NCBI GenBank assembly: GCA_040219085.1 | Contig: JAVJTC010000028.1 | Coordinates: 1 to 64,000 of the forward strand | Reading direction: 5' to 3' | DNA: 64,000 nucleotides | Origin: Acidimicrobiales bacterium | GTDB taxonomy: Bacteria; Actinomycetota; Acidimicrobiia; Acidimicrobiales; JAVJTC01 | Shown here: positions 290 through 42,933 of the stretch, in pieces | Layout: the number at the start of each line of letters is the position of its first letter | Position numbering within the stretch: the first letter of the stretch is position 1 | Notes under the pieces: generated by a model | The model's input: only the letters and a program-made list of their open reading frames with translations | The model's database searches: none | Told to the model about the DNA's origin: nothing | Position numbers and translations under genes: made by a program

Positions 290-641
290 GACCGCCCCCG
301 GTTCTGTGGACAGGGGTTTCTGTGTGATCAGGCCGCCTCTTTGGGCAAACGACTCCCCACCCGGTGGGGCTGGTGCGGGCTCGGCTTGCCGTCGATGGTC
401 CTCTTACCCCGCCGCCTGCCTGTTCCAAGACGCGCTGTCCCTGCGAGCAAGTGTGTATCGCTGAGCACTACGTCGATTCGGATTCTGATACGTTAATAGC
501 CAGTTTCACCCGGTGGCACGAGGCTGGACTATCGCCGCGGCCCGCCGAGAAATCGGCCGCCGTGGTCGACGTTGCCTACGACACTACGGAACTACTGTTC
601 AGCCAATGGAACGGCGAGAACCGGCGACAGCCAGGAGGGAC
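290..641. other. non-coding stretch after IS30 transposase
   Basis: No frame here looks coding. The right terminal inverted repeat of the IS30 element should lie in the first part, but it cannot be fixed without the left end. The last bases carry an AGGAGGG-type ribosome binding site (about 633-638) directly before the ATG at 642. Confidence 0.5.
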
Positions 642-1472
642 ATGGCGACCGGTGCAGAGGCCGTCGGAGCAGACCCACGCTACTACGTGGAGACCGTTGG
701 AAAGGCCGCACATCTCCTGTTGACGGTTGCCGACCTGCGTCGCCCGGTCACACTCGCCCAGCTTGTATCGGAGCTGCGCTGGAACAAGGCGGCCGTCTAT
801 CGGCTGGTGCGCACCCTGGACGCTCTGGGGTTCCTTCGGCTCACGGCTGACGGATACATACCTGGCCCAACCCTCATCACTCTCGGTCAGGCTGCCTTAG
901 AGGCGACCAATCTGCCACAAGTTGCGCGACCCCATCTGGAGGCGTTGGCAGCCGACCTCAACGAGACCGTCGTCGTCACGGTCCTCGATGGTGCCGAGAT
1001 CGTGTATGTCGACCGGATCGAGGCTGAGGCGATACTGATGACGCGATCGAGTGTCGGGTCTCGACTCCCGGCGTACTGCACATGCTCCGGGCAGGTCCAG
1101 CTGGCCGGTCTTGCCGACCACGAGGTCATCCGGCTCGTTGCCGATGGCCCGTTCGAGAAGCGGGCCCCGAATACGCTGACCACTCTCGATGCCCTCCTGG
1201 AGAGAGTCGCAGACATCCGCTCCCAGGGCTATGCGATAAACGACGAAGAGCTGGCGATCGGTCACCGCTCGCTCGCAGTACCCGTCTTCGACTACACCGG
1301 ACATGTCGCGGGAGCGTTGAGTATGTCCGTTCCGGCAGCGCGCGTATCGGCGGACCGCATCCTCGAGTGTCGCGGCCGCCTGCGCGATGCGGCGGCACAA
1401 GTCAGTCATGGACTGGGTGCCCCGCACTCGGCGACACTGGCGTCCTCTTCGTCCGCTGTCATCAACTCGTAG
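642..1472 (+). CDS. IclR-family transcriptional regulator
   Basis: A 276-residue protein of usual IclR length. The N-terminal winged helix (about residues 13-75) contains TVGKAAHLLLTVADL and a recognition helix around WNKAAVYRLVRTLDALGFL. The rest is the IclR effector domain, with LNETVVVTVLDGAEIVYVDR and GYAINDEELAIGHRSLAVPV. The frame is open upstream to 513, but the ATG at 642 has a strong AGGAGGG site and gives the normal length. IclR proteins usually control adjacent catabolic genes and respond to a pathway metabolite. The aminotransferase-to-hydrolase run downstream on the same strand is the obvious target, which is inference. A GTACC/GGTAC inverted repeat before 1862 is a candidate operator. 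Confidence 0.92.
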   Translation: MATGAEAVGADPRYYVETVGKAAHLLLTVADLRRPVTLAQLVSELRWNKAAVYRLVRTLDALGFLRLTADGYIPGPTLITLGQAALEATNLPQVARPHLEALAADLNETVVVTVLDGAEIVYVDRIEAEAILMTRSSVGSRLPAYCTCSGQVQLAGLADHEVIRLVADGPFEKRAPNTLTTLDALLERVADIRSQGYAINDEELAIGHRSLAVPVFDYTGHVAGALSMSVPAARVSADRILECRGRLRDAAAQVSHGLGAPHSATLASSSSAVINS

Positions 1473-1861
1473 ACTCCTGTCCTGGAGCGAGCGGACGCTG
1501 CTCTGGGCGAAGTCCCGAGCGGCGCGTCCTGGAAGACCCGGCGCAAACGCAACGTCGTTCGCATCCATGGAGTTCGTGGGTGGCCGGGTCCGTCTCTGCT
1601 GACTCTCTGCGAATGAGTGGGGGGCGCGAGTTCCGATGGGTTGGTGATGGCCGGTCGGGCCAGGTAATTCCGGCGGCATGCAGCAGCACCTGGAGGCGCT
1701 AGTGCTCGGATATTCGGAAGTCGTGGCCACAGCGTTTGACCTTCTTGACGCGGACGGACGGTCGGTCGCGTCGGGGATTCAGCCCTTGAAATGGCGGTGC
1801 ACATCGTTGTACCGTTCATTGGTACTCCGTATCGACTATCGAACCGAAGGGGCGGGCCTCG
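1473..1861. other. intergenic region before the first catabolic operon
   Basis: About 390 bp without a credible gene; short frames here lack family resemblance and ribosome binding sites. It must hold the promoter of the operon starting at 1862, since all following genes to 16211 are closely spaced. The one structured element seen is the inverted repeat at 1809-1825. Confidence 0.6.
1809..1825. promoter_or_regulatory. candidate operator, inverted repeat GTACC-N7-GGTAC
   Basis: GTACC and GGTAC form a 5-bp inverted repeat with a 7-bp spacer, 37 bp before the aminotransferase start. Position and symmetry suit a dimeric regulator such as the upstream IclR protein. There is only one copy and the half-sites are short, so it could be chance. 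Confidence 0.3.
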
Positions 1862-3217
1862 ATGGGAGATCCCGCTTCAGGATCTGTGACTTCGTTCAAT
1901 AGCGACTACACGGCAGCGACCCCTACCTCTCTCCGAATCTGGCAGGAAGCAAGGGCCATCTTTCCTGGGGGCGTCTCAGGCCAGGCGAAGGTAGTCGCGC
2001 CGTATCCGGTATTCGTTGCATCGGCGTCAGGCGCGACGCTCACGGACGTCGACGGCCGCACGTATGTCGATTTGCTGATGGGCGCGGGTCCTCTGCTCAT
2101 CGGACACTCTCACCCGGCCGTTGTGTCCGCCGTCCAACAACAAGTAGGCGTGATGGCGAACCCGATGATGCCCGTGAGGGAGTCGTTGGAGTACGCCAGG
2201 CGGCTACGAGAGCACATGCCGTATCTCGAGAAGCTGAGGTTCACGAACACCGGCTCGGAGGCCACCCGGTCTGCGATCCGGGTGGCACGCGCCGTGACTG
2301 GGCGTCACAAGATCGCGAAGTTCGAGGGAAACTACCACGGCTCTGACGATTGGGCTCTGGTCTCTGCTCACACCCCAACACCGAAGGGGCCGCCGCTACG
2401 ACCCGATCCTGTGGCCGATTACGCCGGCATGTCACCTGCCGTCCTTGACGAGGTGGTGGTGCTTCCGTACAACGCGCCGGAGGCAGCAGCGGCGATCATC
2501 GATGAGGTCGGTCACGAGCTCGCCGCGGTCATCATGGAGCCCGTCGCCTTCTCGAGTGGTGGGTCGGTGCCTGCCACGCCGGCGTTCGCGCGGACCGTGC
2601 GCGACGCGGTCCACCGGAACGGGGCTCTCCTCATTTTCGACGAGGTGCTGTGCGCGCTGCGCCTCGGCCTTGCGGGTGCGCCGGGCTACCTCGGGGTCGT
2701 TCCGGACCTCGCCACGGCGGGCAAGGCGATTGGCGGCGGCCTCCCTCTGGCTCTGTTCGGCGGTAGGGCAGAGCTCATGGAAGCGACGCTCGGAGCAGAC
2801 GCCGGTGACCGTCGTGTCTTCCAGTCCGGCACCTTCACGGAGAACCCTCTGTCGATTGCCGCCGGCGCAGCAACACTCACAGTGCTCGAAACGACGGACG
2901 CACTTGAGCGCGCGGACTCATCCGGCGAGATGCTCAGGTCGGGGTTGCGGGCGATCGTTGCCGATCGGGGGATCGAGTCGACGGTGACCGGTGTCGGGTC
3001 GATCGCGCAGATCCACTTCGGAGTGACCGCCGTGTCGAATCGCCGCGACGTCCTGGCCGGCGAACCCGAGATGACCCGGAGCGTCCTGCTGGGGATGATG
3101 GCCGGCGGTGTCCTGTGGCCACCGTTCCATCCCGCGATCACCTCCTCGGCCCATGAGGAGTCTCACATCGATCGCGTTCTGTCGACCATGGACGACGTCC
3201 TCCGCACGCTCGCATGA
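1862..3217 (+). CDS. class III aminotransferase, glutamate-1-semialdehyde aminomutase-like
   Basis: A 451-residue PLP-dependent fold-type I enzyme. The N-terminal part has IFPGGVSGQAK and DVDGRTYVDLLMGAGPLLIGHSHP, typical of the HemL-like branch of class III aminotransferases. FTNTGSEATRSAIRVARAVTG is the cofactor phosphate region, LLIFDEVLC holds the aspartate that pairs with the pyridine nitrogen, and ATAGKAIGGGLP holds the Schiff-base lysine, about residue 288. Non-tetrapyrrole relatives in catabolic clusters act on amino acids or amines. Its place at the head of a degradation operon argues against a role in heme synthesis. Its stop overlaps the next start by 4 bp (ATGA). Confidence 0.9.
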   Translation: MGDPASGSVTSFNSDYTAATPTSLRIWQEARAIFPGGVSGQAKVVAPYPVFVASASGATLTDVDGRTYVDLLMGAGPLLIGHSHPAVVSAVQQQVGVMANPMMPVRESLEYARRLREHMPYLEKLRFTNTGSEATRSAIRVARAVTGRHKIAKFEGNYHGSDDWALVSAHTPTPKGPPLRPDPVADYAGMSPAVLDEVVVLPYNAPEAAAAIIDEVGHELAAVIMEPVAFSSGGSVPATPAFARTVRDAVHRNGALLIFDEVLCALRLGLAGAPGYLGVVPDLATAGKAIGGGLPLALFGGRAELMEATLGADAGDRRVFQSGTFTENPLSIAAGAATLTVLETTDALERADSSGEMLRSGLRAIVADRGIESTVTGVGSIAQIHFGVTAVSNRRDVLAGEPEMTRSVLLGMMAGGVLWPPFHPAITSSAHEESHIDRVLSTMDDVLRTLA

Positions 3218-4209
3218 GGCTCGGCCTGTGGCTCCCGACGTTCGGCTCCGACTCTGTGGGCGGCGCGAACCACACCGTCGGGTCACTCGCTTCGCGCGCG
3301 GAGGACGCAGGATTCGACTCCTTGTGGGTCATCGATCACCTCCTGCCCAGCGGAGCTGAAGTCCACACCGGCGCGTGGCTCGACCCGGTGGTGGCGCTCG
3401 CGGCGGCCGCGGCAGTTACGGAGCGACTCGAACTGGGAACGGCGTCGCTGGTGGCAGGACCGCGTCACCCGGTGATGCTCGCCAAGCAGATCGCAAGCCT
3501 CGCGGTCCTTGCCGGCCCGCGCCTGACAGTGGGACTGAGCTCGGGCTGGATGGCTTCGGAATACGAGATCTTCGGCTTCGAGCTGCGGGAACGGGGTCCG
3601 CGCACCGACGAGGTGGCTGAATCGCTCCGACGCCTGCTTGAGGGTCCGGCGAGCTCCGTCGGGCCCTTCTATCCCTTCGACGAGATAACCATCGCGCCAC
3701 GACCGGGATGGCGCGTCCCCATCGTCGTCGCGGGCGGCGGCCGGGTCCCGGACTCGGGGTCGTCGAACGATCTCCCGCAGATGGCCGATCCCGTTCTTCG
3801 CCGGATCTGCCGGTTTGACGGCTGGCTCGCACCCTGCGCAGGAGACGAGGCTCTGACGCTGCAGGAACTCGCGATCGTGAACCGAGCCGTCGGGGATCGC
3901 CCCTTCCGGCGCCTTCACGTTCAGTGGACTCACGTCGTCGACACCGCGGATCGTGACGAGGCTCTCGCTGCTCAGCTCCCCCTCGTGAGGAGGGTGATGG
4001 GCCATGAGCGCCCGACGGAGAACCTCGTGGCGTCATATCTCCTCGGTTCGGTGGATGACATCTGCGCACGAATGGAGCGGATCGCCGCAGCAGGATTTGA
4101 CGATCTCATCGTAGGACCGGTCTCGAACGATCCCGAACAGGTCGACCTCATCGCCGAGGTGGCGAGGTCAGCGGGTGCCGGAGGGGCCCCTGCGGGTCAT
4201 GTCGGGTGA
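3214..4209 (+). CDS. luciferase-like (LLM class) flavin/F420-dependent oxidoreductase
   Basis: A 331-residue TIM-barrel protein of the bacterial luciferase-like family. It opens with the usual first strand (MRLGLWLPTFG), followed by AGFDSLWVIDHLL and LELGTASLVAGPRHPVMLAKQIASL, the common LLM core. The sequence ends with a typical GFDDLIVGPVSNDPEQ segment. These enzymes use reduced FMN or F420; cofactor and substrate cannot be read from the sequence. It overlaps both neighbours by 4 bp, so it is translationally coupled to the aminotransferase and to the amine-dehydrogenase-like gene and probably works in the same pathway. Confidence 0.88.
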   Translation: MRLGLWLPTFGSDSVGGANHTVGSLASRAEDAGFDSLWVIDHLLPSGAEVHTGAWLDPVVALAAAAAVTERLELGTASLVAGPRHPVMLAKQIASLAVLAGPRLTVGLSSGWMASEYEIFGFELRERGPRTDEVAESLRRLLEGPASSVGPFYPFDEITIAPRPGWRVPIVVAGGGRVPDSGSSNDLPQMADPVLRRICRFDGWLAPCAGDEALTLQELAIVNRAVGDRPFRRLHVQWTHVVDTADRDEALAAQLPLVRRVMGHERPTENLVASYLLGSVDDICARMERIAAAGFDDLIVGPVSNDPEQVDLIAEVARSAGAGGAPAGHVG

Positions 4210-6325
4210 GAGACCACCGCTACGACATCTTGTTCGAACCGATTCGCATCGGGCCGAAGGTCCTCCGGAATCGATTCGTGCAGGTGCCGCACTGCTCGCA
4301 TTTCGGGGTCGACCTACCGGGTAGCCAGGCTGGCCTCCGCGCCATGAAGGCCGAGGGTGGCTGGGCGATGGTCAACACCGAGTACTGCTCCATCCACCCG
4401 GAATCGGACGACTATCCGCGCAACTTCGCGCGGCTCTGGGATGACGACGACGTCGCCAATCTCAGCGTGATGACGGCCGAAGTGCACCGCCACGGTGCTC
4501 TCGCAGGCGTGGAGCTGTGGTTCGGAGCAGCGCACGCAGGGAACTACGAGACCCGCGTCCCCCCGCGGGGCGTCTCCCAGCTCAACTCCGACGACTTCCA
4601 CAATCAGTCGTGTTACGCGATGAGCGTCAGCGAGATCCACGAGCTCCAGGACTTCTATGTTTCGGCCGCGCGGAGAGCCGTTTCCGCCGGGTTCGACGTC
4701 ATCAACGTCTACGCCGGCCACTTCCACACGATCACGCTTCAGTTCCTCGCCCAGTTCTACAACAAGCGAACCGACGACTACGGCGGCTCGTTCGAGAACA
4801 GGGTCCGGTTCCTCGAGGAAACGCTCCAGAAGATCCGGGCCGAGGTGGGTGACGCCTGTGCTGTCGGGTCGAGGTTCAACATCGACAGTCTCCGGGGGGA
4901 CGACGGCATCGAGGTCCACGGCGACGGGCTGCGCGTCGTCGAGTACCTCGACGACCACGTGGACTTCTGGGACCTCCACGTAGGGAGCATCACGAACTGG
5001 GAGGACGACAGTGGTCCCAGTCGCATCCACCAGGAGAACTGGACAGCGCCGTGGGTGGGTCACGCTCGATCTGTCAGCAAGAAGCCGATCATCGCGGTCG
5101 GGCGGTTCGTGAGTCCCGACGTGATGGTCGATGTCATCACGTCAGGAGTGGCGGATGTCATCGGCTGCGCCCGCCCGTCCATCGCTGATCCCTTCCTGCC
5201 GCTGAAGATCGAGGAAGGCCGCTTCGACGACATCTGCGAGTGCATCGGCTGCAACATCTGCATCGCAACGGTGTGGGGCGTCGGATCGCGCCTGAAGTGC
5301 ACTCAGAATGCGACGGTCGGGGAGGAATTCCGGCGCGGGTGGCACCCCGAACGGTTCACCATGGCTTCAAACGCCCACCGTCGCGTGCTGGTCGTTGGCG
5401 CAGGGCCGGCCGGACTGGAATGCGCGCGCGTCCTGGGCGAGCGAGACATGGCCGGCGTCCACCTGGTCGAAGCGGGGCCCGACGTCGGGGGGGCCATGGG
5501 GTGGATCCCCAACCTGCCCGGCCTGGGCGAGTGGCGACGCTTCGTCGGTTGGAGAGAGAGCCAGATCACAAAGCTCGCGAACGTGGAGATCGTCACCGGC
5601 TGCCGGCTCGACGTTTCTGGCGTCCTCGATTACGGCGCCGAGATCGTCGTCGTCGCAACCGGATCGACCTGGTCCAGAGACGGGTTGAATCCCGTGACCC
5701 ACGATCCGATTCCTGGGGTGGACGCCTCGGCCCCCCACGTTCTGACGCCCGAACAGGTCATGGTGGATGACAAGCCTATCCCCGGCGAGGCGGTTGTCGT
5801 GTACGACACCGACGGGTACTTCATCGGACCGTCTCTTGCCGAGCGTCTCGCGATCGCCGGTCATCGAGTCCGGCTCGTGTCCCCGCACGCCGAGCCGGGC
5901 GGCTTCCTCCACTTCACTGGGGAGTTCGGCCACGTTCACCGGCGGCTCTACGAGCTCGGCGCCGAGATCGTCGGCAACCACACACTTTCGGCTGTCCACC
6001 CGGGCGGGGTAGTGGCTTCGCACCACTACAGAGACGAGCGAGTTGAGTGGGCCGCCGACGCCGTCGTGCTCGTCACACAGCGCGTCTCCCGCGACGCGCT
6101 CTATCACTCGCTGGTCGCAAACGCCACCGGCCTCGCCGACGCCGGGATCGTCGCCGTCCATCGAATCGGCGACTGCGTCGTTCCGGGCCTGGTTGCCGAC
6201 GCTACCTTCGCCGGTCACCGACTTGCCCGGGAGATCGACGGGGAGGATCCGACGAAACACCAGCCGTTCATCCGCGAGCGCGTCGTCATGTCACCGTCGA
6301 CCTACGCTCAGGCGAGCCGATCGCG

Positions 6326-6329
<4 letters not shown>
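4206..6329 (+). CDS. trimethylamine/dimethylamine dehydrogenase-like iron-sulfur flavoprotein
   Basis: A 707-residue member of the old-yellow-enzyme/2,4-dienoyl-CoA reductase superfamily, closest by eye to trimethylamine dehydrogenase. Cys30 in VQVPHC matches the cysteine covalently bound to FMN in that enzyme. The 4Fe-4S cysteines are about 346, 349, 352 and 365 (CIGCNIC...C), and the C-terminal half carries a dinucleotide fold (LVVGAGPAGLECARVL). Tyr60, Trp105, the Y-A-G-H pair near 170 and the W265/D268 region match substrate-site residues as I recall them. Residue 74 is Phe, and the site matching Trp355 is not cleanly conserved, so the substrate is probably a different secondary or tertiary amine. 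The start overlaps the upstream gene by 4 bp; the ATGA overlap downstream couples it to the hybrid remnant. Confidence 0.9.
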
Positions 6330-6867
<538 letters not shown>

Positions 6868-6871
<4 letters not shown>

Positions 6872-8916
6872 AGCGCATCGGTATCGACGTCGGCGGCACC
6901 TTCACCGACGTCGTCGTTCTCGACGAGGAGTCGGGTGCGACGTCGTGGTTCAAAGCCCCGACGGACTACGGCCAGCCGAGCGACGGGATCATGCACGCGT
7001 TCGAGGAGTCGGGGGTGCCGGCAGGGGATGTCTCACACGTCAAAGTGGGGACGACTCTCGGCTTGAATGCGATTCTGACACGCGGCGGCGCACGCACCGG
7101 GCTGCTCACCACTCGTGGGTTTCGCGATGTGCTCGAGATCCGACGCACCCATCGAAAGAAGCTCTTCGACCTCTACGAAACCGTTCCCGAGCCCCTGGTA
7201 CCTCGGGATCTGCGACTGGAGATTGACGAGCGCGTCTCCTCGGACGGGGGTGTCGTGACGCCACTCGACGAGGACGGCGTGCGGCGGGCGTGGGCGGAGC
7301 TACGGGACAAGGGCGTCACGGCGCTGGCGATTGCGTACCTGTTCTCGTTCGAGAACCCGGACCACGAGATGCGGACCAAGGAGATCGTGCTCGAAGAGGG
7401 TGGTGCCGACGTCGTGTTCACTTCGACGGAGGTGCTGCCGGTCTTCCGCGAGTATGAACGGACCTCGACGACGGTCATCGCCGCGTATGTCGCCCCAGCA
7501 GTACGTGGTTACGTCTCGGAGCTCGCTGCTCGCCTCGGCGCAGAAGGCCTGCGAGCTGGACGGCTGTCCGTGATGACCAACTCTGGGGGCGCCATGAGCG
7601 CGGACGCAGCAGCGGAGGCCCCGGTGCCCACGCTGCTCTCAGGACCGGCCGGAGGTGTGGCTGCAGCTCGTTGGCTCGGAGAGCGCGTGGGCATCCAGAA
7701 CCTGCTCACATTGGACATGGGCGGGACCAGCTGCGACGTGTCAGGAGTCGTCGACGGAGTGCCTGACGAGCGACTCGACATGGAGATCGGTGGGCTCGAC
7801 GTCGCGTATCCGACATTCGACATCCACACGATCGGAGCCGGCGGCGGCTCGGTGGCGTGGATCGACTCGGGCGGCGCTCTCCGCATCGGTCCCGAATCTG
7901 CCGGCGGCGTTCCGGGCCCGGCGTGCTACGGACGCGGCGGTGCACGACCCACGGTCACCGACGCCAATCTCGTGTTGGGGCGCTACGACGTCGCGTATCC
8001 CCTCGGGGGCTCACTGCAACTCGACCTCGAAGCGGCCAAGGTGGCGATCGACACCGACATCGCTGCGCCGCTCGGCCTGAGCATGGAGGAAGCTGCCGCC
8101 GGGATCGTGAGGCTGGTCAACGCTCACATGGCCAACGCCGTGCGCACGATCTCGGTGGAACGCGGCCGTGATGCCCGCCAGTTCGCGCTGGCGGCGTTCG
8201 GAGGCGGAGGACCCGTCCACGCCGTCGACATCGCTCGCGAGCTGCAGATCCCGACAGTTCTCGTCCCGCCCTTCCCGGGTTGCACGTCTGCGTTCGGTGC
8301 CGCGTTGTCGGTGACACGGCGGGACCTGTTGCGTTCAGTCGGCCGTCCCGTCGACGAGCTCGTCGTGGATGAGCTCGCAGTGATGATCGCCGACCTCACT
8401 GCGGAGCTCGGCGAGACGCTCGCCGGTGAAGGATACGAAGCCGACCGGGTCAGCGTCGAAGTCTGGTTGAACTTCCACTACACCGGCCAGGCCCACGATC
8501 TCGCCATCCGCTTGGACGGCGTCGACCTCACGCCCGAAACGCTCGCAGCGGCAGCCGAGGAGTTCCACCGGCTCCATGACCGGCTCTATGGGCACTCGTT
8601 CGACGAGATCCCGATCGAGCTGGTGACGGTCCGGGTCACCGGATTCGGAGCACCGGACGACCCGACCATGTGGTGGGATTGGAGAGCGTCCAGTGGGCCG
8701 GAGCGACACGAGTCACGCGGCGTCTACTTCGAGTCCATCGGCGACTTCGTGGAGACCGAAGTGTGCCTGCGAGCCGAACTCGGCCTCGGTAGCCAGACGA
8801 CGGGCCCGGTCGTCGTCCAATCCGTCGACTCGACCGTTCTCGTCCCACCCGGGTGGAGGGCGACCGCGCATGAGACCGGCACCTTGATCGTCGAGCGAGA
8901 CGAGGAACAGCAATGA
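6868..8916 (+). CDS. hydantoinase/oxoprolinase family subunit A (HyuA-type ATPase)
   Basis: A 682-residue protein of normal HyuA length. The N-terminus has the actin-like ATP-binding start RIGIDVGGTFTDVVVLD, followed by KVGTTLGLNAILTRGGA. The middle holds TLDMGGTSCDVSGV and a GAGGGSVAWID segment, and LAAFGGGGPVHAVDIAREL is the second phosphate region. Family members with a HyuB partner perform ATP-dependent opening of hydantoins or 5-oxoproline, or carboxylation of ketones; sequence alone does not separate these. It starts with GTG overlapping the hybrid remnant by 4 bp and ends overlapping hyuB by 4 bp. Next to an amine dehydrogenase-like gene, an N-methylated or cyclic amide intermediate is plausible but unproven. 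Confidence 0.92.
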
Positions 8917-10682
8917 CCCTGAGCGAAGGAAGCGACCTGATCACGCTTCAGGTGATCAGTTATGCGCTCGCCGCGGCGTCGCGGGAAATGGGAGTCACCC
9001 TCCGCAAGACGTCGTGTTCCCCGATCTTCAACGAGGGGAACGACTACTCGTGCGCGGTGTTCGACTGGAAGGGAGAGATCGTCTCCCATGGAGAGTTCCT
9101 GCCGATCCATCTCGGGTCTCTCTCGTTCTCGGTCGACGCGGTGACCGACGCGTTTCCCCTCGACGAGCTCGCTGCCGGCGACATGGTCATCATGAACGAT
9201 CCCTACCTCGGGGGAACACACCTCAACGACGTGACGCTGGTCGCCCCCATCTTCGTCGACGACGAGCTCGTGGGCTGGGCGGCGAACAGGGCGCATCACC
9301 TTGACGTCGGGGGCACGGTCCCCGGCAGCTTCTTCTCGGCCGCCACGGAGAACTACCAGGAGGGCATTCGGATCAGCCCTCTGAAGCTGGTCGACAGAGG
9401 AGTCCTCGATCGCCGGCTCGTGGACCTCGTTCTCGGCAACTGCCGGCTACCTGCACAGATGCGAGTCGATCTGCAGAGCCAGATCTCCGCGAATCGCACC
9501 GCGATCTCGAGGGTGCAGGATCTCGCTGATCGGCACGGGTCGCAGACCGTGCGAGCAGCCATGACGATGGCCCTCGATCATTCGGAGCAGAGGATGCGCG
9601 CCTCCCTGAGCGCGTTGCCCGACGGCGAGTACCACGCGTCGGACTACGTCGACAACGACGGGATCACCGACGTCCCTCGCGAAGTCCGCGTGACCGTCCG
9701 CATCAGCGGCGACGAGGTCGAGGTCGACTTCACAGGGAGCTCGCCACAGGTCGCCGGGCCCCTGAACTCCGTCCTCGGCTACACCTACTCCGGCGTCTAC
9801 ATGGTGTTCCAAGCCGCCACCGACCCCGACATCGAACCGAACGCAGGGTGCTATCGGCCGATCACGATCATCGCTCCCAAGGGCAGCATCGTGAATCCCG
9901 TCTTCCCCGCGGCGTGCACGGGCGGGAACGAGACGACCTGCATCGTCCACAACGCCGTCTTTCGCGCTCTCGCTCAGGTTCAGGGAACTCGCACGATGGC
10001 GTGCGACCACGGCTCGTCGAACAACATGATCGTTAGCGGCACGGACCCCCGAACCGGCGAACGATACGTAGTCTACGAGTATCCCGAGGGGGGATGGGGA
10101 GGGAACTGCGACCGCGACGGGCTCTCGGCGATCTGGTCCATCGTCGGAAACACCTGGAACGTCCCCGTCGAAGTCGTCGAACGCCGCTTCCCTGTTCGTG
10201 TCGAGAGGTATGAGCTGCGTACGGACAGCGGTGGCGTCGGGCTGCATCGCGGTGGACTCGGTATACGGCGAGAACACAGGCTTCTCGGCCACGACGCCAA
10301 GGTGTCGATCGTGGCCAACCGCGTACGCGTTCCGCCATGGGGGCTCGAAGGTGGCGGACCCGGGGCCCGTGCCGGCTTCGTGATACAGCACGGTGGCGAA
10401 GCTCGCGACGCCGCTCCGGAGTTCGGATCGAAAGCGACCGACGTCGATCTGCGCGACGGAGAAGTCATCTCCCAGCTAACCGCCGGGGGCGGGGGTTGGG
10501 GCGAGGCGTCGCAACGTGATCCCCGGCTCGTCGAACGCGACGTCCGGCTCGGCTACGTGTCCCCAGAGGCCGCTCTCGTCGACTACTGCGTCGTCTTGTC
10601 GGAGGACGGCTCTGTCGACGAGCCGGCGACGGCATCACTTCGTGAAGCCCGCATGAGCCGAAGCAACGGAGCACTCGCGTGA
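8913..10682 (+). CDS. hydantoinase/oxoprolinase family subunit B (HyuB-type)
   Basis: A 589-residue partner of the preceding HyuA protein. Family segments include LRKTSCSPIFNEGNDYSCA, then GDMVIMNDPYLGGTHLNDV, and in the C-terminal half YEYPEGGWGGNCDRDGLSA, with GGLGIRREHRLLGHDAKV and a glycine-rich end (LTAGGGGWG). HyuA and HyuB form a heteromeric ATP-dependent amidohydrolase or carboxylase; in some bacteria they are fused. No third (gamma) subunit of acetone carboxylase type is present nearby, which favours the hydantoinase/oxoprolinase side. The ATG start overlaps hyuA by 4 bp. Confidence 0.92.
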   Translation: MTLSEGSDLITLQVISYALAAASREMGVTLRKTSCSPIFNEGNDYSCAVFDWKGEIVSHGEFLPIHLGSLSFSVDAVTDAFPLDELAAGDMVIMNDPYLGGTHLNDVTLVAPIFVDDELVGWAANRAHHLDVGGTVPGSFFSAATENYQEGIRISPLKLVDRGVLDRRLVDLVLGNCRLPAQMRVDLQSQISANRTAISRVQDLADRHGSQTVRAAMTMALDHSEQRMRASLSALPDGEYHASDYVDNDGITDVPREVRVTVRISGDEVEVDFTGSSPQVAGPLNSVLGYTYSGVYMVFQAATDPDIEPNAGCYRPITIIAPKGSIVNPVFPAACTGGNETTCIVHNAVFRALAQVQGTRTMACDHGSSNNMIVSGTDPRTGERYVVYEYPEGGWGGNCDRDGLSAIWSIVGNTWNVPVEVVERRFPVRVERYELRTDSGGVGLHRGGLGIRREHRLLGHDAKVSIVANRVRVPPWGLEGGGPGARAGFVIQHGGEARDAAPEFGSKATDVDLRDGEVISQLTAGGGGWGEASQRDPRLVERDVRLGYVSPEAALVDYCVVLSEDGSVDEPATASLREARMSRSNGALA

Positions 10683-11647
10683 GCAGTTCGAAGTCCACCG
10701 AGATCGACGAAGCGACGGCGTGCGAGCTCTACGAGACCATGGCGCTCATCCGCCGGTTCGAGGAGCTCGCCTATCGTGCCTACGAGGAGGGAGACGTCGA
10801 AGGGACCGTGCACGTCTCCATCGGTCAAGAAGCCGTCGCCGCTGGGGTCATCAGCGCGCTGGAGCCCACAGACAAGGTGATCAGCCACCACCGGGGCCAT
10901 GGGCATGCGCTCGCCCGAGGCGTCGATCCCGGACGGCTTATGGCCGAGTTGTGCGCCCGCTCGACCGGCGTCTCCGGAGGCAAGGGAGGGTCCATGCACG
11001 CAACCGACGTCGCCTCGGGCTTCCTCGGCACGATGGCCGTCGTCGGCAGCGCCGTACCCCTGGCCACCGGCGTGGCGCTGGCCTCCAAGACCCGGGGAAC
11101 GGGTGACGTGTGCGTCGCCTTCTTCGGTGACGGAGCCATCAACCAGGGCGTGGTGTACGAATCCATGAACCTCGCGGCTCTGTGGGGTCTCCCCGTCCTC
11201 TACGTCTGCGAGAACAACAGCTACGCGATCACCACGTCGGCATCGGCGTCGACGGCCGGCCCCGGCCTGGTCGCCCGCTCGACGTCGTTCGGGCTCGTCG
11301 CGGAAGCGGTCGACGGGCAGGACGCCATCGCAGTGCGCGCCGCCACGGCACGACTGCTTGCCGGGGCCCGCGAGGGAGAACCAGCGCTCCTCGAGTGCAT
11401 GACCTACCGGTTCATGGGACACTCCCGAGGCGACCCGCCACACGGCCTCTACCGGTCGAAGGACGAGGTCGAGACCTGGCGCGAGCGCGATCCCCTGAGC
11501 GAGCTCGCGCGGCGCGCTCGTCTCAGCGAGAACCGATGCGACGAGATCCGCCGACGCGTCGACGAGGTCGCGGTGTCGGCACTCGAGTACGCCCGCGCCT
11601 CTGAGCCCCCCCGTGAAGACGCGCTGTACGAGGACGTCTGGGGATGA
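10679..11647 (+). CDS. 2-oxoacid (acetoin/pyruvate-type) dehydrogenase E1 component, alpha subunit
   Basis: A 322-residue thiamine-diphosphate-dependent subunit. The MALIRRFEELAYRAYEEG start and GTVHVSIGQEAVAAGV are standard. SHHRGHGHALARG and GKGGSMHA belong to the active-site loop region, and the ThDP motif runs from GDGAINQG to CENNSYAIT. The length and start resemble acetoin-dehydrogenase AcoA and short pyruvate dehydrogenase E1alpha chains. It begins with a GTG overlapping hyuB by 4 bp and is followed by E1beta with another 4-bp overlap. The likely reaction is oxidative decarboxylation of a 2-oxoacid or cleavage of an acetoin-like product to acyl-CoA; the substrate is unknown. Confidence 0.92.
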   Translation: MSSSKSTEIDEATACELYETMALIRRFEELAYRAYEEGDVEGTVHVSIGQEAVAAGVISALEPTDKVISHHRGHGHALARGVDPGRLMAELCARSTGVSGGKGGSMHATDVASGFLGTMAVVGSAVPLATGVALASKTRGTGDVCVAFFGDGAINQGVVYESMNLAALWGLPVLYVCENNSYAITTSASASTAGPGLVARSTSFGLVAEAVDGQDAIAVRAATARLLAGAREGEPALLECMTYRFMGHSRGDPPHGLYRSKDEVETWRERDPLSELARRARLSENRCDEIRRRVDEVAVSALEYARASEPPREDALYEDVWG

Positions 11648-12642
11648 CCATCGAGAGCGAGTCCGCAGCGGAGATGACCTTCGCGGAGGCGATCTGTGAA
11701 GCCCAGCGCGACGCCATGGCCATCGACGAGTCGATCATCCTGCTCGGCCAGGACATCGAGTCCGGCTTTCCCTTCGGCGCGACTCGGGGCCTTGCGCAGG
11801 ACTTCGGGACCGACCGGGTGATGAACACCCCGATCTCGGAAGCCGCGACGATGGGATGCGCTGTCGGAGCCGCGATGTCGGGGCTCCGCCCAGTCGTCGA
11901 AGTCGATTTCGCCGGCTTCTTGTATCTGGGCCTGGATCAGCTCCTGAACAACGCGGCCAAGATCCGCTACATGTCGGCAGGCCAGATGAGGGTCCCCCTC
12001 GTCGTCCGCGTCGGTCAGGGTCCACTGGGGTCCTTCGCAGCTCAGCACTCCCAGTCACTCCACGCTGCCCTGGCGGCCTGTCCAGGGATCGCGGTGCTCG
12101 CGCCGTCCGATGCCCAATCCGCGTACGAGTGCATGCGGTGGGCGCTGACTCAGGGCGACCCCGTCGTCGTCTGCGAAGACCTCCGCCTGTATCGCGTGAA
12201 GGCACACGTCACCCGTTCCGACGCCTCCGGCGTCGGGGCACGGCGGGTTCGTCACGGCGAGGACGCGACCGTGCTCTGTTACGGAGCGGGCACCCAGATC
12301 GCACTTCAGGCGGCGGAGCAGCTCTCGGAAGGAGGCATCTCCGTCGACGTCCTCGACCTGGTGAGTCTTTCCCCGCTCGACATCGAGGCGATCGCCGACA
12401 CATGCCGTCGGACCGGTCGGATCGTGTGCCTCGCCGACGACGGCCTCGACTTCGGGGTCGCTCCGACGCTCGCGACGACAGCGACCACGGAGGCCTGGGA
12501 CGTTCTGCGTTCGCCTGTGCTTCAGGTCGGAGCCAGGAGCATTCCGGTTCCTTATGCGAAGGCCCTCGAGGAGCTCGTCTATCCGTCGGTGGAATCGGTC
12601 GTGACAGCTGTTCGAGCCTGTCTCGATTGGAGCTGCGACTAG
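11644..12642 (+). CDS. 2-oxoacid (acetoin/pyruvate-type) dehydrogenase E1 component, beta subunit
   Basis: A 332-residue transketolase-like subunit. TFAEAICEAQRDAMAIDESIILLGQDI is the common opening. RVMNTPISEAATMGCAVGAAMSGLRPVVEVDF is the ThDP-binding region with the catalytic glutamate, then QSLHAALAACPGIAVLAPSDAQSAY, and a C-terminal transketolase domain around DVLDLVSLSPLD. It pairs with the E1alpha encoded just before it. The TAG stop shares its G with the GTG start of the E2 gene (TAGTG), so the three subunits are translationally linked. Confidence 0.92.
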   Translation: MTIESESAAEMTFAEAICEAQRDAMAIDESIILLGQDIESGFPFGATRGLAQDFGTDRVMNTPISEAATMGCAVGAAMSGLRPVVEVDFAGFLYLGLDQLLNNAAKIRYMSAGQMRVPLVVRVGQGPLGSFAAQHSQSLHAALAACPGIAVLAPSDAQSAYECMRWALTQGDPVVVCEDLRLYRVKAHVTRSDASGVGARRVRHGEDATVLCYGAGTQIALQAAEQLSEGGISVDVLDLVSLSPLDIEAIADTCRRTGRIVCLADDGLDFGVAPTLATTATTEAWDVLRSPVLQVGARSIPVPYAKALEELVYPSVESVVTAVRACLDWSCD

Positions 12643-13802
12643 TGCACGAGGTCCGAATGCCCAAGCTCTCGCTCGGCGACGACACAGAGATGCGCGTCGT
12701 CAGATGGGTCGCCTCGGTGGGTGACACCGTGACCGAAGGCCAGCCGCTGCTCGAAGTGGAGACCGACAAGACCACGCTCGAGGTCGAGGCGCCGGCCTCG
12801 GGGGTACTCCTGCGAGTGCTGGCCACCGCGGAGGAGATCGTAACCCACGGCTCGATCATCGGGCTGGTCGGTGACCCCGACGAGATCGATGACGCGGGGA
12901 CTCCTGCGGAGTCGAACAGCCGCCCAGCCGGAGCGCACGCGACCCTCGCGTCCGGCGCTGGCGATCTCGAAAGCGCCGCCGGCCGCTCGGCGGAGGCCGT
13001 TGCAGCGACGGAACCGGAGTCGGCTCCGCCCGAGCGCGTCGCCGTGAGACACGGCGCACTCGGTGGGCTGCCATCCCGACGCCTCTCCCGGAGGAGAGAC
13101 CTGGTAGGGAGGCGCGACATCCGCGCGTCATCCCCAGCCGCAGACCTCAGCGTGGTGGGAGGCGCGTACGAGGTCGTCGAGGCGACAGCTCACCGCAGGG
13201 CCGTGGCGCGGGCGATGGAGAGATCCTCACGGGTTCCCCAGTTCCCGGTGTTCCGCGACTTCGACGTGACCGGCCTCAGGCGGCAGCTCGAATCCCGACG
13301 AGAAACGGTCCCCGAGGCGACCCTCACCGATGTCATCTTGACGGTCGTTGCACACAGCCTGAGACGTCACCCCTCGTTCAACTCGTGGTACGACGAAGGA
13401 CGTTGGACGCGGTTCGCCGACATCAACATCGCTCTCGCAGTCGACGGTCCCCACGGCGTGGTCGCTCCCACCATCCGGCGAGTCGACACGCTGGACCCCG
13501 GTGAGCTCACCGCCCGGCGGGCTGATCTTGTCAGTCGTTCCCAGTCGGGTGAGCTGAAACCGGACGACCTCGTCGGTGCCACGTTCACGGTCTCCAATAT
13601 CGGTCCGCTCGGTGCCAACGCGTTGGCGCCGTTGCTGACTCCTCCCCAGGTCGCGGTACTTGGGGTCGGCAGGCTGCGCCCCGTCGGAACGTCGGCCCTG
13701 ATGACGATGACACTCGTCTCCGACCACCGCTGCCTGGATGGAGCCGACGCCGCACGATTCCTGTCCTCTGTCGCCGAGCAGTGCGCGGACATCCCTCGGT
13801 GA
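12642..13802 (+). CDS. dihydrolipoamide acyltransferase (E2) of the 2-oxoacid dehydrogenase complex
   Basis: A 386-residue protein. An N-terminal lipoyl domain (about residues 5-80) has the lipoylated lysine in ETDKTTLEV, about residue 43. A long Ala/Ser/Glu-rich linker follows, then the acyltransferase domain from about 175, ending in SDHRCLDGADAARFL with the HRxxDG catalytic motif. The peripheral subunit-binding domain normally found between linker and catalytic domain is not recognisable; the matching region is Arg-rich (SRRLSRRRDLVGRRD). No E3 gene is nearby, so a housekeeping lipoamide dehydrogenase would be needed. GTG at 12642 is chosen because it overlaps the E1beta stop; ATG at 12657 is the alternative. 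Confidence 0.88.
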   Translation: MHEVRMPKLSLGDDTEMRVVRWVASVGDTVTEGQPLLEVETDKTTLEVEAPASGVLLRVLATAEEIVTHGSIIGLVGDPDEIDDAGTPAESNSRPAGAHATLASGAGDLESAAGRSAEAVAATEPESAPPERVAVRHGALGGLPSRRLSRRRDLVGRRDIRASSPAADLSVVGGAYEVVEATAHRRAVARAMERSSRVPQFPVFRDFDVTGLRRQLESRRETVPEATLTDVILTVVAHSLRRHPSFNSWYDEGRWTRFADINIALAVDGPHGVVAPTIRRVDTLDPGELTARRADLVSRSQSGELKPDDLVGATFTVSNIGPLGANALAPLLTPPQVAVLGVGRLRPVGTSALMTMTLVSDHRCLDGADAARFLSSVAEQCADIPR

Positions 13803-14533
13803 GGGATCCGTCGCTGCACGAGCGCGTGATCGTGGTCACCGGAAGCAGCCGGGGTATCGGCACCGGGATCGGGACTGCGATCATCGACGCCGACGGCGCA
13901 GTCGTGGGTGTCTCCCGAAGTGGCGACGCGCTACCGGCTGCGGCAGCGGATCGGTTCCGATCGGTGGCTGTGGACATCACCCTGCGAGAAGCGCCTGAGT
14001 TGGCGTTCGAACGGGCCATCGAGGAGTTCGGGCGTGTCGACGGACTCGTCAACAACGCGGGCCTCCACCGGTCGGCCCACTGTTGGGAGCAAAGCGACGA
14101 CGACTTCGATGACATGTACGACGTCAACGTCACCGCTCCGTTCCGCTTCTCGCAGTACTTCGCCCGGCGTTGGATCGACAGCGGGACTCCCGGAGTCATC
14201 GTCAACATCTGCTCGGTCGAGTCCGAGGTTGGCTGGAAGGATCCGCCCCAGGCCGTCTACGCGTCGACAAAGGGTGCGCTGCTCGGCCTCACGCGGGTTC
14301 TCGGCTACGACCTCGCCGCTCACGGCATCCGCGCCGTGGCGGTCGGACCCGGAGCGATCGACACGGGCATGGCAGCCGCCAACAAGGCCGAGACCGAGGC
14401 ACGCATCCCGCTCGGAAACCGCTACGGCACTCCTTCTGACATCGGGTCGGCGACCGTGTTCCTGCTGTCGGACGCCGCGCGGTACGTCACCGGGGAGATC
14501 CTCTATGTCGACGGCGGGTATCGGCTCCCGTGA
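13799..14533 (+). CDS. short-chain dehydrogenase/reductase (SDR)
   Basis: A 244-residue classical SDR. VIVVTGSSRGIGTGIG is the TGxxxGxG nucleotide-binding motif, LVNNAGLHR the NNAG motif, and the Ser...Tyr-x-x-x-Lys catalytic set lies in the CSVESEVG and YASTKGALLG segments. VAVGPGAIDTGMA and ILYVDGGYRLP complete the fold. The GTG at 13799 is preferred because it overlaps the E2 stop by 4 bp (GTGA), the pattern of the whole operon. It probably oxidises or reduces a hydroxy/keto intermediate of the same pathway. Its substrate cannot be inferred. Confidence 0.9.
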   Translation: MRDPSLHERVIVVTGSSRGIGTGIGTAIIDADGAVVGVSRSGDALPAAAADRFRSVAVDITLREAPELAFERAIEEFGRVDGLVNNAGLHRSAHCWEQSDDDFDDMYDVNVTAPFRFSQYFARRWIDSGTPGVIVNICSVESEVGWKDPPQAVYASTKGALLGLTRVLGYDLAAHGIRAVAVGPGAIDTGMAAANKAETEARIPLGNRYGTPSDIGSATVFLLSDAARYVTGEILYVDGGYRLP

Positions 14534-15279
14534 CCTCCGTCGTGCAACAGGACGACAGGTTCGCCGGTCGGCGGGTGATCGTCACCGGGGCGGCATCGGG
14601 AATCGGCGCGTCGGCTGTGGGGCGCTTCGCTGCCGAGGGAGCAGCTGTCGTCGCCGTCGACCGTGATCCGGCTCGGCTCGAAGGGCGCCACGGTGACACC
14701 GCTGGCGTCACGACTTTCGTCGCGGACGTGCGCGACGACGTCCTGCTGGAGTTGATCGCGGGAGGCCCGCCCCCCGACGTGCTGGTCAACGCCGCCGGCG
14801 TGTTGAGAAGAGAACCGTTCGTGACCCACAGCCTCGCGGCCTGGGACGAGACCCTCGCGGTCAACGTCCGTTCCGTCTTCCGCACCAGCCGGACATTCAG
14901 TGCCCGTCACATCGGCGAGAACACTCCCGGCTCGATCGTCAACGTCTGCTCGATTGAGTCCTTCACCGCCGCACCGGATCACGCCGCGTACACGGTCTCG
15001 AAATCCGCCGTGGCGATGCTGACGAGGGCGTTCGCCCTGGAGCTCGCGGATCACGACATCCGGGTCAACGGGATCGCCCCGGGCGTGACTGCGACGGCGA
15101 TGAACGAGGCCCTACGCGAGGACGCTGAGCGCGCGTCGAGGCTGCGACGGTCCATTCCGATGGGTCGGTTCGCCGAGGCCGCCGAGCAGGCTGCCGCCAT
15201 TGCGTTCCTCGCGTCCGATGAGGCCTCGTACATCACCGGCGCCATCCTTCCCGTGGATGGCGGTTGGCTCACGGCGTGA
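14530..15279 (+). CDS. short-chain dehydrogenase/reductase (SDR)
   Basis: A 249-residue classical SDR, coupled by a 4-bp GTGA overlap to the preceding SDR. Motifs are VIVTGAASGIGASAVG for the dinucleotide, a variant LVNAAGVL in place of NNAG, and the catalytic Ser...YTVSK set in SIVNVCSIESF and HAAYTVSKSAVAML. The end, ITGAILPVDGGW, is standard. Two adjacent SDRs often act in sequence or on different stereoisomers; which applies here is unknown. The pair resembles each other but is not a recent duplication by eye. Confidence 0.9.
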   Translation: MTSVVQQDDRFAGRRVIVTGAASGIGASAVGRFAAEGAAVVAVDRDPARLEGRHGDTAGVTTFVADVRDDVLLELIAGGPPPDVLVNAAGVLRREPFVTHSLAAWDETLAVNVRSVFRTSRTFSARHIGENTPGSIVNVCSIESFTAAPDHAAYTVSKSAVAMLTRAFALELADHDIRVNGIAPGVTATAMNEALREDAERASRLRRSIPMGRFAEAAEQAAAIAFLASDEASYITGAILPVDGGWLTA

Positions 15280-15305
15280 CCGAAGCGACGAAAAGGAGCG
15301 ACCCA

Positions 15306-16211
15306 ATGCATGAGTCTGCGTCATTCCAGAGCCACGGTGACACCGTGGAGGGACTCTGGTTCCGGCCCGAGGGCCCCGGCCCTCATCCGACGGTCGTCAT
15401 GGCGGGCGGGTGGTGCTACGTGAAGGAGCTCGTCCAGCCGCGGTACGCGCAGGCGTTCGCCAGGGCCGGTGTTGCGGCGTTGATCTTCGACTATCGCCGT
15501 CTGGGTGCCAGTGGGGGGACTCCCCGTCAGCACCTCGACCCGTGGGCACAGATCGAGGACTACCGCAACGCGATCTCGTACGTGGAGACCCGTGACGACG
15601 CCGACCCCGACCGCATCGCCGTCTGGGGGATCTCCTACAGCGGTGGTCACGTTCTCGTCGTCGGCGGCCTCGACCCCCGGGTCAAATGCCTGATCTCCAT
15701 CGTGCCCGTCATCGACGGCTACGAGACCATGCGCCGCGCTCACGGGACGATGGGATTTCGGAGGCTCAGGGCTGCGGTCCTGGAGGATCGTCGCACCCGG
15801 TTCCTGACCGGCGAGTACGGCTACATGAAGCATTCGTCCGAGGCGCCTGAGACCGAGCTGTGCACCTGGCCCTTCCCGGCGAGTCCGCCCTTGTTCCAGC
15901 ATCTCAAGGAGACCGAGGCTCCGGCCTACGAGAACCGAAACACCATCGAATCGGCAGAGCGACTGATGGAGTACGACGTCAGACCCTACGTCTCCCGCCT
16001 CGTCGACACGCCGACACTCCTGGTCCTGGCGGACAACGACGACTTCACTTTCTCGGACCTCGAAACCACGGCGTTCAACGCGATTCCCACGCCTGACAAG
16101 CGGCTGGTGACCCTCGACGGGACGAGTCACCACGAGATCTACCGGGATCCGGCGAAGACCAAGGTCGCCGCGGACACGTGCATCGAGTGGTTCGACGCCC
16201 ACCTGAGGTGA
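15306..16211 (+). CDS. alpha/beta hydrolase (dienelactone hydrolase/X-Pro dipeptidase-like)
   Basis: A 301-residue serine hydrolase. The nucleophile elbow is WGISYSGGH (G-x-S-x-S/G-G), an aspartate follows near the LVLADNDDFTF strand, and the catalytic His is in GTSHHEIY. The ATG at 15306 has an AAAAGGAGC site upstream. Related proteins hydrolyse esters, amides or lactones. It is the last gene of the run that begins at 1862, with a 26-bp gap after the second SDR, so it is probably part of the same transcript. No clear terminator hairpin follows. Confidence 0.85.
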   Translation: MHESASFQSHGDTVEGLWFRPEGPGPHPTVVMAGGWCYVKELVQPRYAQAFARAGVAALIFDYRRLGASGGTPRQHLDPWAQIEDYRNAISYVETRDDADPDRIAVWGISYSGGHVLVVGGLDPRVKCLISIVPVIDGYETMRRAHGTMGFRRLRAAVLEDRRTRFLTGEYGYMKHSSEAPETELCTWPFPASPPLFQHLKETEAPAYENRNTIESAERLMEYDVRPYVSRLVDTPTLLVLADNDDFTFSDLETTAFNAIPTPDKRLVTLDGTSHHEIYRDPAKTKVAADTCIEWFDAHLR

Positions 16212-17027: not shown

Positions 17028-17057
17028 TTGACACGAACGGTCGTTTGTTCGTACACT
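17028..17057 (+). promoter_or_regulatory. promoter of first substrate-binding protein with operator copy B in the spacer
   Basis: TTGACA (17028-17033), an 18-bp spacer and TACACT (17052-17057) form a sigma-70-like promoter. The palindrome ACGAACGGTCGT (17033-17044) fills the first part of the spacer, a position where a bound repressor would block RNA polymerase. The second lipoprotein gene has the same arrangement at 27481-27510, which supports both assignments. Confidence 0.65.
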
Positions 17058-27510: not shown

Positions 27511-27602
27511 GACTATCACGACATCCGCCGTTCGGAGATATGCGGCCAGCGTGCCATCCGTGCTGTGCCGAGAAGCGCTGCGGACAACAGAGGGGAACAC
27601 TC

Positions 27603-42587: not shown

Positions 42588-42612
42588 TGCCGCGTCTTTC
42601 TGAGTTGGAAGG

Positions 42613-42933
42613 ATGCGAACTATGCCGAAGAAGATCGATCCGAGGGTCAAGGAGCGCTGCGTGCGTCAGGTCCTCGACCATCTGCAGGAGTACTCGTCGT
42701 TGACGGCGGCCGCGGAGGCTGTCGCCCGACGCGAGAACGTCGGGAAGGAGACCGTGCGCCGCTGGGTGATCCAGGCCCAGATCGATGGCGGCCAACGCCA
42801 GGGCCCGACGTCGGAGGAGCTGGCCGAGATCAAGGAACTCAAGGCCAAGGTCCGGCGTCTCGAGCAGGACAACGAGATCCTGCGACAGGCATCGATTTTC
42901 TTCGCGGGGGAACTCGACCCCCGCGACCGTTGA
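42613..42933 (+). CDS. IS3-family transposase OrfA
   Basis: A 106-residue protein with an N-terminal helix-turn-helix (LTAAAEAVARRENVGKETVRRWVIQ) and a C-terminal leucine-zipper-like coiled coil (AEIKELKAKVRRLEQDNEILRQ). It binds the element ends. OrfB lies in the -1 frame. Near the end of OrfA a TTTTC run (42896-42900) is followed by a perfect 8-bp stem with 7-nt loop (42903-42925), which could promote the programmed -1 frameshift that makes the OrfAB transposase in this family. The slip site is not a classical A6G heptamer, so the TTGA start/stop overlap at 42930 may matter as well. Confidence 0.88.
   Translation: MRTMPKKIDPRVKERCVRQVLDHLQEYSSLTAAAEAVARRENVGKETVRRWVIQAQIDGGQRQGPTSEELAEIKELKAKVRRLEQDNEILRQASIFFAGELDPRDR

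What the first reader, a model, noticed from the sequence alone, without database searches (positions are those of the whole stretch)
1862..16211. Unassigned catabolic operon joining an amine-dehydrogenase-like enzyme, HyuAB and a 2-oxoacid dehydrogenase complex
Aminotransferase, LLM oxidoreductase, TMADH-like protein, HyuA/B, E1alpha/E1beta/E2, two SDRs and an alpha/beta hydrolase are in one direction, mostly with 4-bp or 1-bp overlaps. I know no described pathway with this set. The logic suggests N-dealkylation or oxidation of an amine, ring or amide opening by HyuAB, transamination and oxidative decarboxylation to acyl-CoA. The order of steps is a guess.
Basis: partly seen in the sequence, partly recalled or inferred. 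Interest (0 to 1): 0.65.

Follow-up and report, generated by a model that had tools for sequence, protein, structure and literature searches.

The report
N-heterocycle breakdown operon with gene relic
A draft bacterial genome carries a tightly packed run of twelve genes that most likely breaks down a nitrogen-containing ring compound; no described pathway with this gene set was found, and one gene in the middle is the stump of a lost molybdenum enzyme that relatives still carry intact.

Summary
Twelve same-strand genes (1862-16211) follow an IclR regulator, and all 11 junctions overlap (ten by 4 bp, one by 1 bp). It is an in-frame fusion of the start of a molybdenum-hydroxylase FAD subunit to the end of the Mo subunit, most likely a deletion relic. 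The TMADH-like protein is 51% identical to TMADH but groups on the tree with only three of 80 fetched relatives (support 0.989). Two of these (Prauserella, Pseudonocardia) lie beside an intact Mo-hydroxylase, the only two of the 80 that do; the third lies beside HyuAB, a class III aminotransferase and ETF. The hyuA-hyuB-E1alpha-E1beta block plus the alpha/beta hydrolase recurs in two genomes of another genus of the same order, without E2, TMADH or aminotransferase. The full set was found nowhere else. Best reading: N-alkyl heterocycle catabolism (amine oxidation, lactam formation now lost or supplied elsewhere, ATP-dependent lactam opening, transamination, then acyl-CoA). Substrate and step order are not shown. 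It is a new combination of known enzyme families, of moderate interest.

The parts
513..1472 (+). IclR-family regulator, probable regulator of the operon
   Evidence: Pfam IclR_C 2.6e-42, HTH_IclR 4.8e-8
1809..1825 (.). Perfect palindrome GTACC-N7-GGTAC, 36 bp upstream of the first gene; candidate operator
   Evidence: Only occurrence in the window, 0.04 expected; function not tested
1862..3217 (+). Class III aminotransferase, GSAM-like
   Evidence: Pfam Aminotran_3 4.2e-63; best PDB match GSAM 253 bits, also D-phenylglycine and beta-Phe aminotransferases ~196-200 bits; below NCBIfam cut-offs
3214..4209 (+). LLM flavin/F420-dependent oxidoreductase
   Evidence: Pfam Bac_luciferase 5.1e-38; TIGR03619 144 bits, below cut-off 166.9
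4206..6329 (+). TMADH-family amine dehydrogenase (OYE-like FMN domain, 4Fe-4S cysteines, nucleotide-binding domains)
   Evidence: 752 bits, full length, to 1djn TMADH; 51% identity; Cys30, Y60, Y169, H172, W264, D267 and four cluster Cys kept, W355 replaced by V with a W one residue later
6326..6871 (+). g4, relic: N-terminal part of a Mo-hydroxylase FAD subunit fused in frame to the C-terminal ~90 aa of a Mo subunit
   Evidence: Pfam FAD_binding_5 2.7e-9 over 66 residues; XdhA/CoxL C-terminal hits up to 1.2e-14; BLAST to the complete enzyme elsewhere in the window; ORF open, codon bias as in neighbours
6868..8916 (+). HyuA: ATP-binding subunit of an ATP-dependent lactamase/hydantoinase
   Evidence: Pfam Hydantoinase_A 2.9e-86; CapA 535 bits vs ApcC 285; phosphate motif DVGGTFTD at the N-terminus
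8913..10682 (+). HyuB: metal-binding subunit
   Evidence: Pfam Hydantoinase_B 9e-186; D44, H103, D106 and H128/H129 fall at the metal tetrad region
10679..11647 (+). E1 alpha of a 2-oxoacid (or acetoin-type) dehydrogenase
   Evidence: Pfam E1_dh 4.8e-69; TIGR03182 347 bits, cut-off 394
11644..12642 (+). E1 beta
   Evidence: Transket_pyr 1.2e-33, Transketolase_C 1e-25
12642..13802 (+). E2: lipoyl domain + acyltransferase domain; E3-binding domain not recognised
   Evidence: Biotin_lipoyl 2.4e-15, 2-oxoacid_dh 6.2e-50, no E3-binding domain at E<=0.01; lipoyl motif ETDKT and catalytic DHRCLDG
13799..14533 (+). SDR oxidoreductase 1
   Evidence: Pfam adh_short_C2 1.9e-49
14530..15279 (+). SDR oxidoreductase 2
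   Evidence: Pfam adh_short_C2 2.1e-52; best NCBIfam glucose/butanediol dehydrogenase-like, below cut-offs
15276..16211 (+). alpha/beta hydrolase (S15/CocE-like, partial match to UilS lactonase)
   Evidence: Peptidase_S15 3.6e-12; NF047920 129 bits, cut-off 400; 48-50% to the hydrolase near hyuAB-E1 in G990/G1027

Best explanation
The operon most likely encodes catabolism of an N-alkylated or cyclic amine whose ring is carried to a lactam. Proposed steps, all inferred: the TMADH-like enzyme oxidises a C-N bond to an iminium that hydrolyses, passing electrons through its 4Fe-4S cluster to ETF; a molybdenum hydroxylase formerly oxidised a ring carbon next to N to give a lactam; HyuAB opens the lactam at the cost of ATP; the class III aminotransferase removes the freed amine; SDRs and the alpha/beta hydrolase process the carbon chain; E1-E2, with an E3 encoded elsewhere, yields an acyl-CoA. 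Shown here: the gene set, its tight packing, the relic, and the placement of the TMADH-like protein in a clade whose members sit beside Mo-hydroxylases or HyuAB. The Mo-hydroxylase genes were most likely lost by an in-frame deletion; that step is either supplied by one of several other Mo-hydroxylases in the genome or no longer needed because the substrate now enters as a lactam.
For: All 11 junctions overlap. HyuA/HyuB score with lactamases/hydantoinases, not carboxylases, and are only two genes, the arrangement of the hydrolase branch (PMC5214803). Precedent for HyuAB + class III aminotransferase: caprolactam pathway (PMC6061476). Precedent for a TMADH-family enzyme and a Mo-hydroxylase in one N-heterocycle pathway: Pno and NdhAB of nicotine degradation (PMC5500553). 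Clade {window, L053, L067, L078}, support 0.989; Mo-hydroxylase beside TMADH-like genes in 2 of 80 loci, both in this clade, chance about 0.001. L078 carries FAD-FeS-Mo, two LLMs, alpha/beta hydrolase, M20 amidohydrolase and the TMADH-like gene on one strand. L053 carries ETF, HyuAB and class III aminotransferase. HyuA-HyuB-E1a-E1b-...-ABH recurs in G990 and G1027. HyuAB + class III aminotransferase + intact FAD-FeS-Mo cluster in G595. E3 and ETF exist in the genome.
Against: No enzyme has been assayed and no substrate is known. The complete set was found in no other genome. G990/G1027 lack TMADH, aminotransferase and E2, so the HyuAB-E1 block may serve a different substrate. The Mo-hydroxylase step that the logic needs is broken in this operon. 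The relic is not specifically closest to the Prauserella/Pseudonocardia enzyme (36% over 70 aa); it scores better with G595 and with another enzyme of its own genome. W355 of the TMADH aromatic bowl is not conserved in place.
Confidence: 0.5

Rival explanations
1. The operon is a composite of two modules that do not form one pathway: an amine/N-heterocycle module (aminotransferase, LLM, TMADH-like, Mo-hydroxylase relic) and a HyuAB-E1-E2-SDR-ABH module for a different compound, merged or decaying after loss of the Mo-hydroxylase.
For: HyuAB-E1ab-ABH occurs without TMADH/aminotransferase in G990 and G1027; TMADH-like with Mo-hydroxylase occurs without HyuAB or E1 in L067 and L078; the relic lies at the boundary of the two halves.
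Against: All junctions overlap, including both sides of the relic, and codon bias is similar throughout; L053 holds TMADH-like, HyuAB and aminotransferase together, though on opposite strands and with HyuB only 28% identical.
Confidence: 0.27
2. E1-E2 acts as an acetoin-type alpha-ketol cleaving complex: SDRs oxidise a diol to an alpha-hydroxyketone, which E1-E2 splits to an aldehyde and an acyl-CoA; the transaminase is not its feeder.
For: E1 alpha falls short of the pyruvate dehydrogenase cut-offs; SDR2 resembles meso-2,3-butanediol dehydrogenase, 184 bits against a cut-off of 270; class III aminotransferases usually give aldehydes or ketones, not 2-oxo acids (own knowledge).
Against: No test run here places E1 alpha with acetoin enzymes; E2 has the normal acyltransferase domain; the SDR scores are far below cut-off.
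Confidence: 0.15
3. The 181-aa fusion is an assembly error, and the real genome carries a complete Mo-hydroxylase here.
For: The genome is a 45-contig draft with 2.18% estimated contamination; related loci carry intact enzymes.
Against: The fusion is in frame and the ORF keeps 4-bp overlaps on both sides; a shuffled stretch of this length is stop-free in about 2% of trials. Repeats at the junction that could explain a collapse were not tested.
Confidence: 0.08

Closest known systems
Trimethylamine/dimethylamine/histamine dehydrogenase family, incl. 6-hydroxypseudooxynicotine oxidase Pno
   Same: Full-length homology, FMN cysteine, 4Fe-4S cysteines, Y169-H172-D267; used in an N-heterocycle pathway in the case of Pno (PMC5500553)
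   Different: 51% to TMADH but in a separate clade; W355 absent in place, V344->E, Y442->R; different neighbours
Caprolactamase CapAB and ATP-dependent hydantoinase/5-oxoprolinase
   Same: Two subunits, ATP motif, metal site; in the caprolactam cluster also found with a class III aminotransferase (PMC8453981, PMC6061476)
   Different: Below the CapA/CapB equivalog cut-offs (535 and 342 bits against 1000); accompanied by TMADH-like and E1-E2 genes
Anaerobic indoleacetate pathway of Aromatoleum (HyuAB-type gamma-lactamase)
   Same: A HyuAB-type enzyme opens a lactam within a CoA-linked N-heterocycle pathway (PMC5214803)
   Different: No TMADH-like or E1-E2 genes known to me in that pathway (from memory)
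Hybrid nicotine pathway (NdhAB Mo-hydroxylase + Pno, Agrobacterium S33)
   Same: Mo-hydroxylase plus TMADH-family enzyme on one N-heterocycle (PMC5500553)
   Different: No hydantoinase is mentioned in that paper; the Mo-hydroxylase of the window operon is broken
AcoABC / pyruvate and branched-chain 2-oxoacid dehydrogenases
   Same: E1 alpha, E1 beta and lipoyl E2 in one operon
   Different: No E3 in the operon, no recognisable E3-binding domain, below PDH cut-offs

Membership tests
Trimethylamine dehydrogenase (true TMADH) | Aromatic bowl Y60, W264, W355 | tested here: not met
   Y60 and W264 kept; position 355 is V with W one residue on
Trimethylamine dehydrogenase (true TMADH) | Groups with 1djn on a tree | tested here: not met
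   Groups with L053, L067, L078, support 0.989, outside the 1djn group and the Y60Q group
TMADH family (broad) | FMN cysteine, 4Fe-4S cysteines, catalytic triad, ~700 aa multidomain protein | tested here: met
   C30, equivalents of C345/348/351/364, Y169, H172, D267; full-length match
ATP-dependent lactamase/hydantoinase (HydAB branch) | Two genes hydA-hydB, no third carboxylase subunit | tested here: met
   HyuA-HyuB followed directly by E1 alpha; criterion from PMC5214803
ATP-dependent lactamase/hydantoinase (HydAB branch) | ATP phosphate motif and Asp/His/Asp/His metal site | tested here: met
   DVGGTFTD; D44, H103, D106, H128/129; which of the two histidines corresponds to CapB His124 is not settled
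ATP-dependent lactamase/hydantoinase (HydAB branch) | Hydrolysis of a cyclic amide with ATP | not testable with these tools
   Needs an enzyme assay
Caprolactamase CapAB | NCBIfam equivalog cut-off | tested here: not met
   535 and 342 bits against 1000
Molybdenum hydroxylase (CoxMSL/XDH type), gene g4 | Complete FAD, 2Fe-2S and Mo-binding domains | tested here: not met
   Only FAD-domain N-terminus (66 aa) and Mo-subunit C-terminus (~90 aa)
Pyruvate dehydrogenase complex | Equivalog cut-offs for E1 alpha and E2 | tested here: not met
   E1 alpha 347 of 394 bits, E2 far below; E3 only elsewhere in the genome
Acetoin dehydrogenase | Activity on acetoin / grouping with AcoA | not tested
   No reference AcoA sequence was placed on a tree

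The most novel reading that the evidence does not exclude
The TMADH-like proteins of this clade are a separate amine-dehydrogenase subfamily specialised for N-alkyl heterocycles that works in series with a Mo-hydroxylase and a lactam- or amide-opening enzyme, forming an undescribed actinobacterial pathway that in this genome ends in a dedicated 2-oxoacid dehydrogenase.
Probability: 0.35. Interest if true: 0.6.

Novelty: new variant of a known kind. Interest (0 to 1): 0.42.

Why it matters
If true, it adds a catabolic route for N-heterocycles (alkaloid-like or synthetic amines) in little-known actinobacteria, points to a TMADH subfamily with a different substrate, and gives a testable case of a pathway that lost its Mo-hydroxylase in mid-operon while keeping translational coupling.

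Tried and rejected
A first genome scan with the TMADH-like protein alone found nothing; an alignment query worked. E1 alpha searches over 396 phylum and 296 class genomes gave only general E1 hits up to about 49% identity, and 20 of their neighbourhoods held no HyuAB. The HyuB neighbourhoods read in G056 had no E1 or TMADH. TMADH-like + fused HyuAB in four proteobacterial loci (L097, L102, L103, L105) was set aside: the neighbours of the one annotated (L103) are mostly housekeeping genes and their TMADH-like proteins have E60/D355, unlike the window. Carboxylase function for HyuAB was considered and rejected on scores and gene order. Plasmid neighbours of the hydrolase and of the downstream transporter did not name a substrate. 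Paper searches for the gene combination found nothing. iqtree did not run in the box, FastTree was used. No structure was predicted.
Full report
What is there. The window is the first 64 kb of contig C28 of a 3.77 Mb draft genome with no other member of its family among the genomes returned. Twelve genes run in one direction from 1862 to 16211 behind an IclR regulator: class III aminotransferase, LLM oxidoreductase, TMADH-like flavoprotein, a 181-aa ORF (g4), HyuA, HyuB, E1 alpha, E1 beta, E2, two SDRs and an alpha/beta hydrolase. With the starts given in the parts list, ten junctions overlap by 4 bp (ATGA/GTGA) and one by 1 bp (TAGTG). A single palindrome GTACC-N7-GGTAC lies 36 bp before the first gene. 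The next run of genes begins at 17093 with its own TTGACA-N18-TACACT match, so the unit probably ends at 16211.

The missed gene. g4 (6326-6871) matches 66 residues at the start of the FAD_binding_5 domain and then the last ~90 residues of XdhA/CoxL-type Mo subunits. BLAST against the complete Mo-hydroxylase at 46740-50569 of the same window finds both halves independently. The reading frame is open, codon bias equals that of its neighbours, and 4-bp overlaps are kept on both sides. An in-frame deletion removing the rest of the FAD subunit, the 2Fe-2S subunit and most of the Mo subunit, in FAD-FeS-Mo order, explains this best. The genome has at least seven other places that match the Mo-subunit end.

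The TMADH-like protein. It aligns over its full length with TMADH 1djn (752 bits, 51% identity). The FMN cysteine, the four cluster cysteines, Y60, Y169, H172, W264 and D267 are kept; W355 is V, with a W one residue later; V344 is E, Y174 is H and Y442 is R. On a tree of relatives it is outside the TMADH group and the Y60Q (DMADH-like) group and joins L053 (Actinomycetota MAG), L067 (Prauserella endophytica) and L078 (Pseudonocardia kujensis), support 0.989. Of 80 loci fetched with TMADH relatives, only L067 and L078 gave a Mo-hydroxylase match, in FAD-FeS-Mo order; their Mo subunits are 70% identical. The chance of both falling among the three sisters is about 0.001, but the two loci are related to each other, so they are not independent events, and flanks differ in length. 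L078 has Mo-hydroxylase, two LLMs, alpha/beta hydrolase, DUF1028, M20 amidohydrolase and the TMADH-like gene on one strand. L053 has a RidA-like gene, the TMADH-like gene, a cupin, ETF beta and alpha and an Fe-S protein, and on the other strand HyuA, HyuB and a class III aminotransferase.

The HyuAB-E1 half. HyuA and HyuB score highest with caprolactamase and N-methylhydantoinase and much lower with carboxylases, and lack a third subunit gene, the arrangement of the hydrolase branch in PMC5214803. Motifs corresponding to those mutated in caprolactamase (PMC8453981) are present. HyuA-HyuB-E1alpha-E1beta recur in this order in G990 and G1027, about 39-42% identical, followed by a polyamine-type ABC transporter, a polysaccharide-deacetylase-fold protein, a hydrolase 48-50% identical to the window's, and an LLM 50% identical to the one at 29047-30060 of the window (annotated in G990; matched in G1027). 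They lack E2, TMADH and aminotransferase in the stretches read. A third arrangement, G595, joins HyuAB and a class III aminotransferase to an intact FAD-FeS-Mo set. So parts of the operon recur in several combinations.

How it probably works. Inference, from the families: amine oxidation by the TMADH-like enzyme with ETF as acceptor (two ETF alpha genes exist); lactam formation by a Mo-hydroxylase, now lost here; ATP-dependent lactam opening by HyuAB; removal of nitrogen by the class III aminotransferase, as in caprolactam catabolism (PMC6061476); processing by SDRs and the hydrolase; acyl-CoA formation by E1-E2 with the genome's E3. The TMADH-family enzyme Pno and a Mo-hydroxylase act in one nicotine pathway (PMC5500553), a precedent for the pairing. 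Nothing here identifies the substrate. Whether E1-E2 acts on a 2-oxo acid or an alpha-ketol is open.

Limits. No expression or activity data; draft assembly; the public collections searched are samples; FastTree supports are local values; the role of the TMADH pocket residues is own knowledge plus the alignment to 1djn.

Noticed in passing
17093-41227: A second catabolic island (PBP, EthD, LLM, fused ABC ATPase-permease, acyl-CoA dehydrogenase, Zn-ADH, TetR, then MaoC, CoA-ester lyase, AMP ligase, FAH, biotin carboxylase, carboxyltransferase, ALDH). Rhodococcus ruber MSA14 pmega_1 (L231) has much the same gene content, ABC protein 53% identical.
   Followed up: partly
44492-50569: Complete Mo-hydroxylase on the - strand with its FAD and 2Fe-2S subunits fused in one ORF (49049-50569), next to an M20 amidohydrolase and a carbon-nitrogen hydrolase: looks like another N-compound catabolic set.
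   Followed up: no
27540-28916: Peripla_BP_4 protein with a long GDDGSTGDDGASS repeat linker after its signal region, read by Pfam as collagen repeat.
   Followed up: no
G000:C29:188851-189453 (L224): A 1252-aa open frame that joins a Mo-subunit C-terminus to a FAD-subunit N-terminus, the opposite order to the relic.
   Followed up: no
L097, L102, L103, L105: Proteobacterial loci with a TMADH relative (E60/D355) convergent with a fused or adjoining HyuAB (about 1240 aa).
   Followed up: partly
41865-43901: 5-hmdU DNA kinase-like helical domain protein and a transposase-type integrase (rve) close together, a possible insertion boundary in the window.
   Followed up: no
17034-17051: Inverted repeat CGAAC-N8-GTTCG overlapping a promoter-like match in front of the 17093 operon; candidate TetR operator.
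   Followed up: no
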